Of a stretch of 64,000 nucleotides of DNA, positions 17,982-41,175 are shown in pieces. The stretch spans positions 549,191-613,190 of the forward strand of contig NZ_BMLV01000002.1 of NCBI RefSeq assembly GCF_014645495.1, read 5' to 3'. This stretch comes from Cloacibacterium rupense (GTDB lineage Bacteria; Bacteroidota; Bacteroidia; Flavobacteriales; Weeksellaceae). Below the pieces are notes generated by a model. That model did not search any database, was not told the DNA's origin, and was given only the letters and a program-made list of their open reading frames with translations. Every line of letters starts with the position of its first letter. Positions within the stretch are counted from its first letter, which is position 1. The position numbers and the translations under genes are program-made.

Positions 17982-18057
17982 ATAAAAAAACCGAATGAGA
18001 GAAATGAAATGTGGCCTAAATTTTCTGAGTTGCATAATTAAAATTTGAGCTGAATAT

Positions 18058-18185
18058 GCGCGAAGGATGGTAGTGAAAATCCTTTTTAAATTTTATGAGA
18101 GAGGAATAGTGATGGAAAATTTAAAAAGATTGTAACGGACAGCCTGACCTGAGGCGCTGGGAATGTGGCTGTGGAAGGGCGCGCC
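18058..18185. repeat. Structured intergenic element (nested inverted repeats)
   Basis: A locally GC-richer element with nested pairing: outer arms GCGCG (18058-18062) and CGCGC (18180-18184); hairpin AAGGAT/ATCCTT (18063-18068, 18079-18084); a perfect 12-bp stem TTTTTAAATTTT/AAAATTTAAAAA (18083-18094, 18116-18127) around a purine-rich loop; and hairpin GCCT/AGGC (18142-18145, 18152-18155). No reading frame runs through it. The layout resembles a repeat I recall from many flavobacterial intergenic regions (GGAT...ATCCTTTTT, a variable stem, then AAAAAGAT and an AACGGA...AGCC segment). I cannot confirm the family here. Confidence 0.6.
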
Positions 18186-38539: not shown

Positions 38540-38581
38540 CAAAGATAAACTTTAACAATGTTTTGGCACTACGGGAACCCG
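38540..38581 (-). promoter_or_regulatory. Response-regulator-type promoter P2
   Basis: Palindrome CGGGAACCCG at 38572-38581 and, on the minus strand, -7 box TATCTTTG at 38540-38547; centre-to-centre distance 33 bp. Same architecture as P1 and P3; this palindrome is the shortest and probably weakest. Confidence 0.6.
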
Positions 38582-38590
38582 GAAAGCAAG

Positions 38591-38628
38591 AAAAACAAAG
38601 GAGAGAAAATAATTTCCTCACCTTTGTT
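38591..38628 (-). terminator. Terminator of candidate small RNA 1
   Basis: On the minus strand AACAAAGG pairs with CCTTTGTT, continues past one T-T mismatch with GAGGAA/TTTCTC pairing, and ends in TTTTT then CTT. On the plus strand no T-run follows, so the terminator faces minus. Confidence 0.75.
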
Positions 38629-38725
38629 GAAAACTTACTCTATTCAGATGAATTCTAGAAAAAATACCTGCGCTATCTAAAAATTCAAATGATAAGTAAA
38701 AAAGACTATATGAAGTTAAATTACT
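38591..38725 (-). ncRNA. Candidate small RNA 1 (promoter P1)
   Basis: Predicted minus-strand transcript of about 135 nt, from about 41 nt downstream of the P1 palindrome centre to the T-run of a strong terminator. There is no ATG anywhere in it on the transcribed strand, so it is unlikely to encode a protein. The terminator hairpin contains GGTGAG...CTC, a core shared with the hairpin at the end of candidate RNA 2, so the two may be diverged copies. It lies directly 3' of the response regulator gene on the same strand. Confidence 0.55.
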
Positions 38726-38729
38726 GAAT

Positions 38730-38775
38730 CAAAGATAGGAGAAAGGATAATATTAACATTACGGGTACCCGTAAT
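38730..38775 (-). promoter_or_regulatory. Response-regulator-type promoter P1
   Basis: A perfect 18-bp palindrome ATTACGGGTACCCGTAAT at 38758-38775 and a minus-strand -7 box TATCTTTG at 38730-38737, centres 33 bp apart. No -33 TTG is present, as expected if an activator at about -41 replaces it. Confidence 0.7.
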
Positions 38776-38829
38776 AGGAGGAATAAAGTTGCTTTTTTTA
38801 AAAAAAATACGAAAAATTGATTAATAAAA

Positions 38830-39492
38830 CTAAATGATGCCTAAGTCTTTGCATTTAACAATCAATTCAATATTGTTTTTGGCATTGAGGCTTTCTCTCA
38901 TGTCATTCAGTTTTTTTTCCAAAGAACTTAACCCATAAGGTTTTATATCATTTTTTTTGAAATGCTCTTCTATTTCTTGTTGCCTATATCCTTTTGATAG
39001 CATTGTAATGAGCGTGATGTCGTAATCAGAAAATTCAATAGAATTCTTCTTGATACTAAACCTTATCTCTTCAGGCAAATAATATCCTTTTTCTGCAACT
39101 GTAGTGATGGCTTTTTTCAACTCTTTAGCATCGTTTCTGCCTTTGCTTACAAAAGCGTTTACGTTGTATATTTTAAACAAATCTTCTATCGATTTGGGCT
39201 TGTTTTCTATAGAAAAAACAACAACTCTAAGTTCTGGGGCTATCTCTCTAGCTGCTAGAATAAGATGTCTACCTGATTTTATATTCTGTTCAAGATAATC
39301 TTCTTCAAACGATAAATCTGTAATTAATAAGTCATAAGGGTCATTCTCAAAAATAGATTTTTTAATTTTTGCCAAAGCATCATCACAATAGTTGACAAAA
39401 TCATATTGAGTAATTTTTAATTCTTCTAAAGTCTTAATGACACCTAGGTTATAGGTTTCATAATCTTCCGCAATAAGTACTTTTCTAAACAT
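38830..39492 (-). CDS. Response regulator, REC plus LuxR-like output region
   Basis: A 220-residue response regulator. The receiver domain has the acidic pair in VLIAEDYE near residue 9, the phospho-accepting Asp in LLITDLSF near 58, Ser in VVFSIENK near 95 and Lys in FVSKGRND near 116. The C-terminal part (about 150-220; TLITMLSKGYRQQEIEEHF) resembles a LuxR/FixJ helix-turn-helix with a longer linker. It starts 3 nt after the sensor kinase gene and is the obvious partner. An internal promoter (P3) in the kinase 3' end can express it separately. Confidence 0.88.
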   Translation of the reverse strand: MFRKVLIAEDYETYNLGVIKTLEELKITQYDFVNYCDDALAKIKKSIFENDPYDLLITDLSFEEDYLEQNIKSGRHLILAAREIAPELRVVVFSIENKPKSIEDLFKIYNVNAFVSKGRNDAKELKKAITTVAEKGYYLPEEIRFSIKKNSIEFSDYDITLITMLSKGYRQQEIEEHFKKNDIKPYGLSSLEKKLNDMRESLNAKNNIELIVKCKDLGII

Positions 39493-39495
39493 CAG

Positions 39496-41175
39496 TTAAA
39501 TAGGAATATTAAGAGTAACTATTAATCCTCCTTTAGGATTTTTTTCAAAATTAATAACTCCATCGATTGTGGCAATACGGGTTCCCGTATTGCGAAGGCC
39601 TGTTCCAGTTTTTTTTTCTAAATCTTGAATTCCTACGCCATTATCTGTATATTTTATAAAAAGATTTTCTAAATTCTTTTCAAATTTTATAGCGACTAGG
39701 TTGGCAAAACTGTGTTTTTTCATGTTCACCATCAGTTCTTGAAGAACATAGAAAAGCTCTTTTTTCTTCTTCTCAGAAATATTAGTCCATAAGTGCTCTG
39801 TATTCCCAATAATGATTACTTTGATTTCTTCAGAAGAATAAGAACTCAGCATCAAAGATATTTTTTTGTAAAACTCTAGGGAGGCATCTTCAGATGGTTC
39901 GTGGGAGATGTCTCTTGATTTTTCATAGAGATTTTCTAGCTGATCCAGAAGTTTATCTTTAATGACTTCTTCCTTATTCTGAAGTTCTACCATAGTTTGG
40001 TAAAGGCCATTGGCAACTACGTCATGTACTTTTTTAGAATATTTAATTTTAGTATTATTTATCTCTCTTTCTTTTTCTAATTCTAGTATCTTTTTTCTCC
40101 TTTGATACCAAAAATAGCCACCAAAAATGCTAATTAGGAGTAAGAATAATAAAAAGTATAAACGAAGAATTCTATTTTCCTTTTCTACAGTTTCTGTCTT
40201 TAGCTTCTGGTTTTCTATTTGTTTTTTTTCGGTTTCATAACGAATGAGCGCAAACTGATTTTTGGCTTTATTTCTTTCTGTTTGTACGCTGTCTCTTATC
40301 AAATCATATTTTTTGAAAAGTTCTTTAGATTTGATAGGGTTTTCTAGAAAGATGATTTTTTGTAAGGCTTCTAATTGATCATCAGGATTGTTTATTTTTT
40401 GAGCAATTTCATACATTTTTTTGGCATAGAAAAGAGATTTTTGGGCATTTTTTTCTTTGTAATAATCGGCTAAAGTTGCATAACTAGAATTAAGCCCCCA
40501 AGAATCATTTTTCGTTTCTCTTATTTCTAATGACTTCGAAAAATAGGGTAAAGCATTAGCGTTTTTATTCTCAAGAAAATAACTTCTTCCAATATTGTTG
40601 AGGGTTCTAGCATATGAGATGCTGTCTTTGGTTCTGAGAGCTCTAGCGTAATATTCTCTAGCTTTTTGGTAATTTCTTAAACCTAAAAAAGTATTCCCAA
40701 TGTTATTATAATAGATATATTTAGATTCATTATCTTGAGTGGTGTTTAATGCAAGATTATAGTATTTCTGTGCATTATCAAAATTTTCAAGCTCATCATT
40801 GGCAAGCGCTAGATTATTGTAATTTGAAGACTTTAGTTGGTTGGTTATACTGTCATTATTTTTAAGGAACTTTTCTGCTTCTAATGAAGTCTCTATTCCG
40901 CCAAAGAAATCACCATAGTCGGTTTGAATAATTGCCATATTAATGAGACTTTTTGTAATTCCAAGAGTATCATTAATCTTAAGAAAATCGTTTTTAGCAA
41001 TGTTATAATAAACAAAGGCAGAATCATAATTTCCAGAATCTCTATAATCACCAGCTTTAGTGTAATGGGCATTTTTTGTAGGAATAGAAGCTGTTTTTTT
41101 ACTCTTTTCTGAGCAATGAATCAGCGCCAATGCCATAAATAAGAAGAATAAGTTTTTCAAGGTTGTAATTTTCAC
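39496..41175 (-). CDS. TPR-containing sensor histidine kinase (HisKA_3/NarL-type)
   Basis: A 559-residue sensor. The N-terminus (MKITTLKNLFFLFMALALIHC) looks like a lipoprotein or signal sequence; residues about 30-310 are tetratricopeptide repeats (ALANDELENFDNAQKYYNLA; YNNIGNTFLGLRNYQKAREY), placed outside the cytoplasm by one membrane segment near 333-352. The kinase core has H-box KVHDVVANGLYQ near 383, N-box MVNMKKHSFAN near 485, YTDNGVGIQD near 511 and GTGLRNTGTRIAT near 523-535. GTG start; no ATG nearby. The last G-box is encoded by an operator-like palindrome. Confidence 0.9.
   Translation of the reverse strand: MKITTLKNLFFLFMALALIHCSEKSKKTASIPTKNAHYTKAGDYRDSGNYDSAFVYYNIAKNDFLKINDTLGITKSLINMAIIQTDYGDFFGGIETSLEAEKFLKNNDSITNQLKSSNYNNLALANDELENFDNAQKYYNLALNTTQDNESKYIYYNNIGNTFLGLRNYQKAREYYARALRTKDSISYARTLNNIGRSYFLENKNANALPYFSKSLEIRETKNDSWGLNSSYATLADYYKEKNAQKSLFYAKKMYEIAQKINNPDDQLEALQKIIFLENPIKSKELFKKYDLIRDSVQTERNKAKNQFALIRYETEKKQIENQKLKTETVEKENRILRLYFLLFLLLISIFGGYFWYQRRKKILELEKEREINNTKIKYSKKVHDVVANGLYQTMVELQNKEEVIKDKLLDQLENLYEKSRDISHEPSEDASLEFYKKISLMLSSYSSEEIKVIIIGNTEHLWTNISEKKKKELFYVLQELMVNMKKHSFANLVAIKFEKNLENLFIKYTDNGVGIQDLEKKTGTGLRNTGTRIATIDGVINFEKNPKGGLIVTLNIPI
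39546..39593 (-). promoter_or_regulatory. Response-regulator-type promoter P3 inside the kinase gene
   Basis: 10-bp arms GCAATACGGG and CCCGTATTGC around TT (39572-39593) and a minus-strand -7 box TAATTTTG at 39546-39553, centres 33 bp apart. It would start a transcript about 49 nt before the response regulator ATG. The codons used here (CGC, ACG, CGT) are rare in neighbouring genes, where Arg is mostly AGA, suggesting selection on the DNA itself. Confidence 0.7.

What the first reader, a model, noticed from the sequence alone, without database searches (positions are those of the whole stretch)
38540..39593. Three CGGG-N2-CCCG palindromes, each exactly 33 bp from a TAnnTTTG box, around a two-component system
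Palindrome centres at 38766.5, 38576.5 and 39582.5 are each 33 bp upstream, on the minus strand, of exact -7 boxes centred at 38733.5, 38543.5 and 39549.5 (TATCTTTG, TATCTTTG, TAATTTTG). Such identical spacing three times in 1.1 kb, all on the kinase/regulator strand, is very unlikely by chance. It places the palindrome near -41, the class II activator position, and no -33 element is needed. The simplest reading is a regulon of the adjacent LuxR-like response regulator (38830-39492), including its own promoter. I know of no described system of this form in Flavobacteriia.
Basis: partly seen in the sequence, partly recalled or inferred. Interest (0 to 1): 0.85.

Follow-up and report, generated by a model that had tools for sequence, protein, structure and literature searches.

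The report
Sensor switch controlling antiviral defence genes
Three repeated DNA signs beside a bacterial sensor gene pair turn out to belong to a promoter type shared by many related bacteria, where it sits in front of many different antivirus defence genes, so the pair probably works as a common on-switch for immunity; this is inferred from sequences and has not been tested in cells.

Summary
The three CGGG-N2-CCCG palindromes are local versions of TTACGG-N4-CCGTAA, 33 bp (centre to centre) upstream of TAnnTTTG. In 80 named loci encoding a relative of the regulator, all 127 same-strand boxes found 15-79 bp from a palindrome sit at exactly 33. The exact element occurs in 156 of 172 regulator-positive and 3 of 74 regulator-negative family genomes, and in 28 of 31 versus 0 of 265 across the phylum. 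The regulator is RcsB-like, beside a TPR histidine kinase. Elsewhere the element precedes defence operons: Cas9, Gabija, restriction-modification, CBASS, Kiwa, Wadjet, Hachiman, Shango; 25 of 68 sites have a PADLOC hit in the first two genes. Best reading: a two-component activator of an anti-phage regulon, working like pseudomonad Gac/Rsm defence control but directly at promoters. In the window's own genome only the three local sites exist: autoregulation, a small RNA, and a probable relic. Phage contigs carry the element too (109 stretches against 20 for a reversed control). Nothing was tested experimentally.

The parts
39496..41175 (-). Sensor histidine kinase: N-terminal signal-like segment ending in Cys, TPR repeats, transmembrane segment (by eye), H-box SKKVHDVVANGLYQ, HATPase_c
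   Evidence: TPR; HATPase_c 25.5 bits, just under its cut-off; H-box in 79 of 80 kinases incl. window; an ORF over 250 aa ends next to the regulator start in 79 of 80 named loci
38830..39492 (-). RcsB/NarL-like response regulator, proposed activator
   Evidence: (E9, D10, D59, K117 invariant in 54 sequences)
39575..39590 (.). Palindrome ATACGGGTTCCCGTAT inside the kinase coding end; proposed activator site for the regulator's own promoter
   Evidence: synonymous-codon constraint in homologues
39546..39553 (-). -7 box TAATTTTG, 33 bp from the palindrome centre
38759..38774 (.). Full palindrome TTACGGGTACCCGTAA downstream of the regulator gene
   Evidence: 0 mismatches
38730..38737 (-). -7 box TATCTTTG, 33 bp from the palindrome centre
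38591..38725 (-). Predicted small noncoding transcript ending in a terminator-like hairpin (about 38595-38628 plus T-run); conserved in 5 genomes of the genus
   Evidence: 38582-38725 folded, z -4.48; no ORF of 10 or more codons common to all five; two of the five share a similar 18-22 codon one; found only in loci of these 5 genomes
38569..38584 (.). Imperfect palindrome TTCCGGGTTCCCGTAG; probable relic of a promoter whose gene is gone here
   Evidence: 2 mismatches; borderline leader similarity to the first site of G006
38540..38547 (-). -7 box TATCTTTG of the imperfect site

Best explanation
The kinase at 39496-41175 and the RcsB-like regulator at 38830-39492 form a two-component system. 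The phosphorylated regulator (inferred) binds TTACGGN4CCGTAA as a dimer (inferred) and activates promoters that have only a TAnnTTTG -7 box 33 bp away, touching RNA polymerase from about -41 (inferred from the fixed spacing). It activates its own gene from a site hidden in the kinase coding end. In relatives (Chryseobacterium, Flavobacteriales of other families, Pedobacter, Chitinophaga; order names recalled) the same element occurs beside the regulator, and in the family and order genomes examined it also sits before scattered anti-phage operons and small cassette genes, so the system acts as a common on-switch for immunity, probably answering a danger or envelope signal sensed by the TPR domain (signal unknown). 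In the window's genome the visible targets are the regulator and a small RNA.
For: 127 of 127 same-strand boxes at 33 bp in 80 named loci, against 5 scattered boxes on the other strand. Genome-wide in 12 regulator-positive genomes 49 of 59 palindrome-box pairs have gap 21 (= 33), in 12 negative genomes 0 of 2 (binomial 4e-63). Co-occurrence: family 156/172 vs 3/74, Fisher 6.5e-42; within genus g26 13/14 vs 3/22; phylum 28/31 vs 0/265. Reversed-pattern control 0 in all 246 family genomes and 0 in all 296 phylum genomes. Codons: Thr ACG 58 of 58 (background 13%), Arg CGT 67 of 76 (16%) at the site inside kinase genes (related sequences, so not independent). Regulon: 25 of 68 sites with a PADLOC hit in the first two genes against 25 model hits (11 model names), each in one gene, among 118 random genes. 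Fisher: 1.2e-5 if 11 control genes hit, 0.008 if that is doubled because a site has two genes, 0.026 at the bound of 25 genes. Also Cas9, type I R-M, type IV restriction, putAbiC. Fold RcsB-like, pLDDT 90.6.
Against: No binding, expression or phage data. 43 of the 68 sites lack a PADLOC hit in what was tested; five of these have no ORF by my rule, two of which (L180, L181) lie beside a regulator gene. Some sites precede non-defence genes (Tex-like proteins, SH3-like lipoproteins, DUF4236). 16 regulator-positive family genomes lack an exact element and 3 regulator-negative ones have it. The window's own genome has no element elsewhere. Pfam GerE is not detected. At the strictest control bound the defence enrichment is weak (p 0.026). 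The sites come from a truncated listing, mainly of genus g20.
Confidence: 0.82

Rival explanations
1. The palindrome is bound by another transcription factor that merely travels with this two-component system.
For: Binding was not tested; 3 of 74 regulator-negative family genomes carry the exact element.
Against: The element tracks the regulator inside genera and across the phylum (0 of 265 without it), is beside it in 75 of 80 named loci, and a LuxR-type dimer suits a 16-bp palindrome near -41 (recalled).
Confidence: 0.08
2. The system is a local autoregulated device; defence genes carry the element only because islands copied it along and it has no immune function.
For: In the window's genome only local sites exist; regulator-negative G031 has near-matching sites, one before a type IV restriction gene, so sites may travel with cargo. 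The enrichment for defence genes is modest at the strictest control bound.
Against: Palindrome, 33-bp spacing and box are all kept before unrelated defence operons in regulator-positive genomes, and the exact element is absent from 71 of 74 regulator-negative family genomes, which suggests selection.
Confidence: 0.1
3. It is a general stress or antagonism regulon (envelope damage, rival bacteria) with phage defence as one arm, as for Gac/Rsm in Pseudomonas.
For: Non-defence cargo: SH3-like lipoproteins, TerD, DUF1508, YidD, DUF4236; periplasmic TPR sensor (inferred).
Against: The recognisable large operons are mainly anti-phage. This rival overlaps the main reading and differs mainly in the signal and breadth.
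Confidence: 0.4
4. The sites bind a repressor rather than an activator.
For: Palindromes can serve either role.
Against: The site lies upstream of the box at a rigid 33 bp and there is no conserved -33 element, as expected for activator-dependent promoters.
Confidence: 0.05

Closest known systems
Gac/Rsm regulatory pathway of Pseudomonas as defence coordinator (PMC11888443; abstract, passages and Discussion seen)
   Same: One two-component system raises many unlinked anti-phage and anti-bacterial systems; GacA is a LuxR-type regulator (recalled) acting through sRNAs, and an sRNA-like output exists in the window's genus
   Different: Gac/Rsm acts through sRNAs and RsmA after transcription; here the element sits directly before each defence operon, in another phylum, beside a TPR kinase
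RcsB (NarL/FixJ response regulators; PDB 6eo2, 6eo3, 5vxn, 5w43)
   Same: Best sequence and fold relative (E 4.7e-12; Foldseek E 3.3e-9, TMq up to 0.67)
   Different: About 20% identity; different site, kinase and targets
Response_reg_2 / HEF_HK two-component-like pairs next to R-M systems (PMC8011034; abstract and outline seen)
   Same: Two-component-like genes linked to restriction-modification
   Different: Defined by gene neighbourhood and other Pfam domains; its abstract describes no operator or genome-wide regulon

Membership tests
NarL/FixJ (LuxR-type) response regulators | Receiver with acidic pair, phospho-Asp and Lys | tested here: met
   E9, D10, D59, K117 invariant in 54 sequences; Pfam Response_reg only 20.8 bits, cut-off 30.2
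NarL/FixJ (LuxR-type) response regulators | C-terminal GerE-type helix-turn-helix | tested here: inconclusive
   Pfam finds none; the model has five C-terminal helices and aligns over its length with RcsB
HisKA_3-like sensor kinases | H-box and HATPase in a kinase beside the regulator | tested here: inconclusive
   H-box in 79 of 80 kinases; HATPase_c 1.9e-5, 25.5 bits against a 26.4 cut-off; HisKA_3 not reported
Class II activator-dependent promoters | Operator at a fixed distance upstream of the -7/-10 box, near -41 | tested here: met
   33 bp in 127 of 127, 49 of 59 genome-wide; the start point itself is inferred
Class II activator-dependent promoters | Activator contacts RNA polymerase and raises transcription | not testable with these tools
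   Needs binding and transcription assays
Gac/Rsm pathway | RsmA/CsrA-type RNA-binding protein titrated by sRNAs | not tested
   No search for CsrA was made; sites lie directly before target genes
Response_reg_2 / HEF_HK pairs | Pfam PF19192 and PF19191 domains | tested here: not met
   Pfam gives Response_reg, TPR and HATPase_c, not these

The most novel reading that the evidence does not exclude
A dedicated two-component system of Bacteroidota is a master activator of immunity: one operator-promoter element plugs CRISPR-Cas, restriction, CBASS, Gabija, Kiwa, Wadjet, Hachiman, Shango and small cassette genes into one signal. Phages have taken up the same promoter to time small genes of their own (candidate counter-defence or lysogeny control, including repressor-like genes) to the host's alarm.
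Probability: 0.5. Interest if true: 0.96.

Novelty: new variant of a known kind. Interest (0 to 1): 0.9.

Why it matters
How unlinked defence systems are switched on together is little known outside pseudomonads; the Discussion of PMC11888443 says that pathways coordinating defence in other phyla may well await discovery. This element gives a candidate with a searchable signature: it predicts which genes belong to the immune regulon, points to possible new defence genes (43 of 68 sites lack a PADLOC hit in what was tested), and makes the signal testable in Chryseobacterium or Flavobacterium. If phages use the same promoter, their downstream small genes are candidates for counter-defence.

Tried and rejected
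Chance or coding by-product: rejected by shuffles, exact spacing and codon bias. Known RNA family at the intergenic region: none at Rfam gathering scores. A structured RNA beyond its terminator: only the terminator stem is predicted in common, with 3 pairs changed on both sides in 5 sequences. The RNA in other genera: among 293 loci held, nhmmer found it only in loci of the five genomes, plus one weak partial match at E 0.89. A missed regulator in six element-bearing genomes (G089, G190, G202 with exact elements; G031, G003, G015 with near ones): only weak matches, best 1.2e-12. Relic idea for 38572: leader alignment score 33 against a shuffled maximum of 31, borderline. Literature: searches listed no description of this element or of a defence regulon of this kind in Bacteroidota; I saw listings only, apart from the two papers named.

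Rows dropped before counts: the 68 sites are all exact matches in 66 regions that I chose from the truncated listing, leaving out sites that I knew to be near a regulator gene, two near contig ends (G097 C54 and C79), and those of G016 and G025 fetched earlier. A later check showed that two of the 68 (L180, L181) do lie beside a regulator gene, so 66 are away from one; all 25 hits are among those 66. PADLOC was run protein by protein on 40 of the 82 operon proteins, mostly one per site and chosen by me (18 of 40 with E up to 1e-12); the others were scanned only in the tally. From that I took L182 (listed there) and assigned by eye four type III R-M sites (L188, L214, L216, L224) and two further Shango sites (L205, L241); the four and the three Shango proteins are each mutually similar. 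Several small proteins that looked non-defence were not scanned singly. Control genes were counted per gene and at the looser 1e-10. One search counts only complete first ORFs after full-palindrome viral sites; one search used 135 of the 148 proteins listed.
Full report
Observation. The three palindromes and boxes are where the finding puts them, on the minus strand, each 33 bp apart centre to centre. CGGGNNCCCG was expected 0.06 times in the window and none of 100 shuffles reached three. The upstream site lies in the last part of the kinase gene; the other two lie between the regulator gene and a convergent acetyltransferase gene.

Conservation near the regulator. A search of 59 related genomes gave 17 good homologues of the regulator, the window's own included. 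Fourteen of these 17 loci have at least one palindrome-box pair at exactly 33 bp; one has 32 and two have none. The shared motif is TTACGGNNNNCCGTAA. In 80 named loci, the best of a larger capped set from one scan (Chryseobacterium, Epilithonimonas, Empedobacter, Elizabethkingia, Pedobacter, Hufsiella, Chitinophaga and others), all 127 boxes found 15-79 bp downstream of a palindrome in the direction of the regulator gene sit at 33; the other direction has five boxes, at 21, 31 and 55. Seventy-five of 80 loci have a pair; both Empedobacter loci have none. The upstream copy starts 82-123 bp before the start codon and the first downstream copy 0-282 bp after the stop.

DNA-level selection inside a gene. 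In 76 kinases in which I found the motif, the codons that form the upstream palindrome are nearly fixed: Asn AAT 76 of 76, Thr ACG 58 of 58 against 13% in the same genes, Arg CGT 67 of 76 against 16%. Protein constraint alone does not explain this, though the sequences are related and not independent.

Genome-wide link. In 246 genomes of the family the exact element occurs in 159 and the regulator in 172: both 156, regulator only 16, element only 3, neither 71; the reversed pattern gave 0 (the cross-table is my reading of the two lists). Within genus g26 the split is 13 of 14 against 3 of 22. Across 296 genomes of the phylum the element occurs in 28 and the regulator (E up to 1e-25) in 31; all 28 are among the 31. 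With the gap left free from 8 to 38, 49 of 59 pairs in 12 regulator-positive genomes have gap 21, while 12 negative genomes have two pairs, none at 21. These genomes are related, so p-values are only a guide; the within-genus contrast is the better control.

Promoter anatomy. In 68 exact sites (66 of them away from a regulator gene) there is no conserved -33 element: positions between palindrome and box carry at most 0.48 bits. The first start codon is at a median of 35 nt after the box in the 63 sites with an ORF. By established knowledge of Bacteroidota promoters (recalled) a TAnnTTTG box lies near -7, which puts the palindrome near -41, the place of LuxR-type class II activators (recalled).

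What the element controls. I first read the downstream genes. PADLOC then found, in the first two genes of the operon, Gabija GajA (L186, L203), type III restriction-modification (four sites, by eye from the tally), Kiwa (L206, L219), a CBASS cyclase (L212; one prokaryotic STING domain is in the set), Wadjet JetA (L223), Hachiman HamA (L227), Shango (L233, and two by eye), type II methyltransferases (L207, L213), IetS-like (L197), PD-Lambda-1 (L237) and candidate families PDC-S06, M22A, S26 and M36A (L182, L192, L217, L236), with weaker or partial hits at L185, L190 and L225: 25 of 68 sites. Among 118 genes of random regions, 25 models (11 names) each hit one gene; 82 operon proteins drew hits from 283 models. 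Sites with at most one mismatch in other genomes precede Cas9 (L094), HsdM as second ORF (L075), an HsdR-like protein (L078), type IV restriction (L095, in a regulator-negative genome) and putAbiC (L082); five of the ten proteins had no PADLOC hit. Not all targets are defence: Tex-like proteins three times, SH3-like lipoproteins (by eye), DUF4236 and others. Directly after the regulator a varying cassette of small genes is common; by eye a DUF1508 protein and an HSDR_N/PD-(D/E)XK protein recur (Pfam run on one example each).

The proteins. The regulator has a canonical receiver; its AlphaFold2 model (pLDDT 90.6) has a receiver and a C-terminal helical domain and matches RcsB best by sequence and fold. 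An ORF of over 250 aa ends next to the regulator start in 79 of 80 named loci; with the window's kinase, 79 of 80 such proteins have the SKKVHDVVANG-type H-box (L100 lacks it). TPR repeats were shown for the window's kinase. A simple lipobox pattern fits 43 of the 80 N-termini, many of which may be cut short by my start choice, and not the window's own; a periplasmic TPR sensor is inferred.

This genome. Only the three local sites are found at up to two mismatches; at three mismatches seven more places appear against six for the reversed control. The first site would drive the regulator. The second would drive a roughly 135-nt RNA ending in a terminator-like hairpin, conserved in five genomes of the genus; no ORF of ten or more codons is common to all five, although two share a similar 18-22 codon one. 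The third is imperfect and has no gene before the convergent neighbour; its leader resembles, at a borderline score, that of a small gene in G006, so I take it as a relic.

Phages. The exact element is in 109 stretches of IMG/VR contigs against 20 for the reversed pattern; some stretches come from one contig and some phages are near relatives. Of 115 matches 71 have the full 16-bp palindrome, where about 12 would be expected from base composition. Of 59 complete first ORFs 46 have at most 112 aa, and 14 begin 4 nt after the box; three look like phage repressors by eye. Neighbours include endolysin, terminase, head protease and repressor families. Some contigs may include host flanks, and function is unknown.

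Known or new. PMC11888443 (abstract, passages, Discussion) shows one pathway, Gac/Rsm, coordinating anti-phage and anti-bacterial defence in pseudomonads and speculates that pathways in other phyla await discovery. Searches listed no such report for Bacteroidota; the library lacks most subscription papers and preprints. The parts (two-component system, class II activation) are of a known kind; the direct defence regulon in this phylum is the new part.

Shown versus inferred. Shown by sequence: the element, its spacing, its conservation, its link to the regulator, and its place before defence genes. Inferred: binding, activation, phosphorylation, the signal, and any effect on phage.

Noticed in passing
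L294-L402 (viral contigs): The same palindrome-33-box promoter sits before small phage genes, including a 66-aa family (7 loci), a 43-aa membrane protein (4) and repressor-like genes.
   Followed up: partly
18044-18153 +: Rfam match Flavo-1 RNA, 60.4 bits.
   Followed up: no
L108, L113, L127, L130, L135, L141, L145: Tandem second regulator gene after the downstream element, 38 nt from the box in six of the seven, further off in L108.
   Followed up: no
L095 (G031): A genome without the regulator keeps two near-matching elements about 10 kb apart and facing each other, one before a type IV restriction gene and one before a small Cys-rich gene, suggesting that elements travel with cargo.
   Followed up: partly
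L115:5795-5998 and similar: Recurring small Cys-rich protein of about 66-73 aa (YYVN..AQ..GDHEVH..C) without a Pfam family, often first under the element after the regulator.
   Followed up: no
L403: One regulator homologue (40% identity) on an 18.5-kb viral contig.
   Followed up: no
L200, L211, L217: Tex-like RNA-binding protein gene first under the element in three genomes; role in defence not tested.
   Followed up: no
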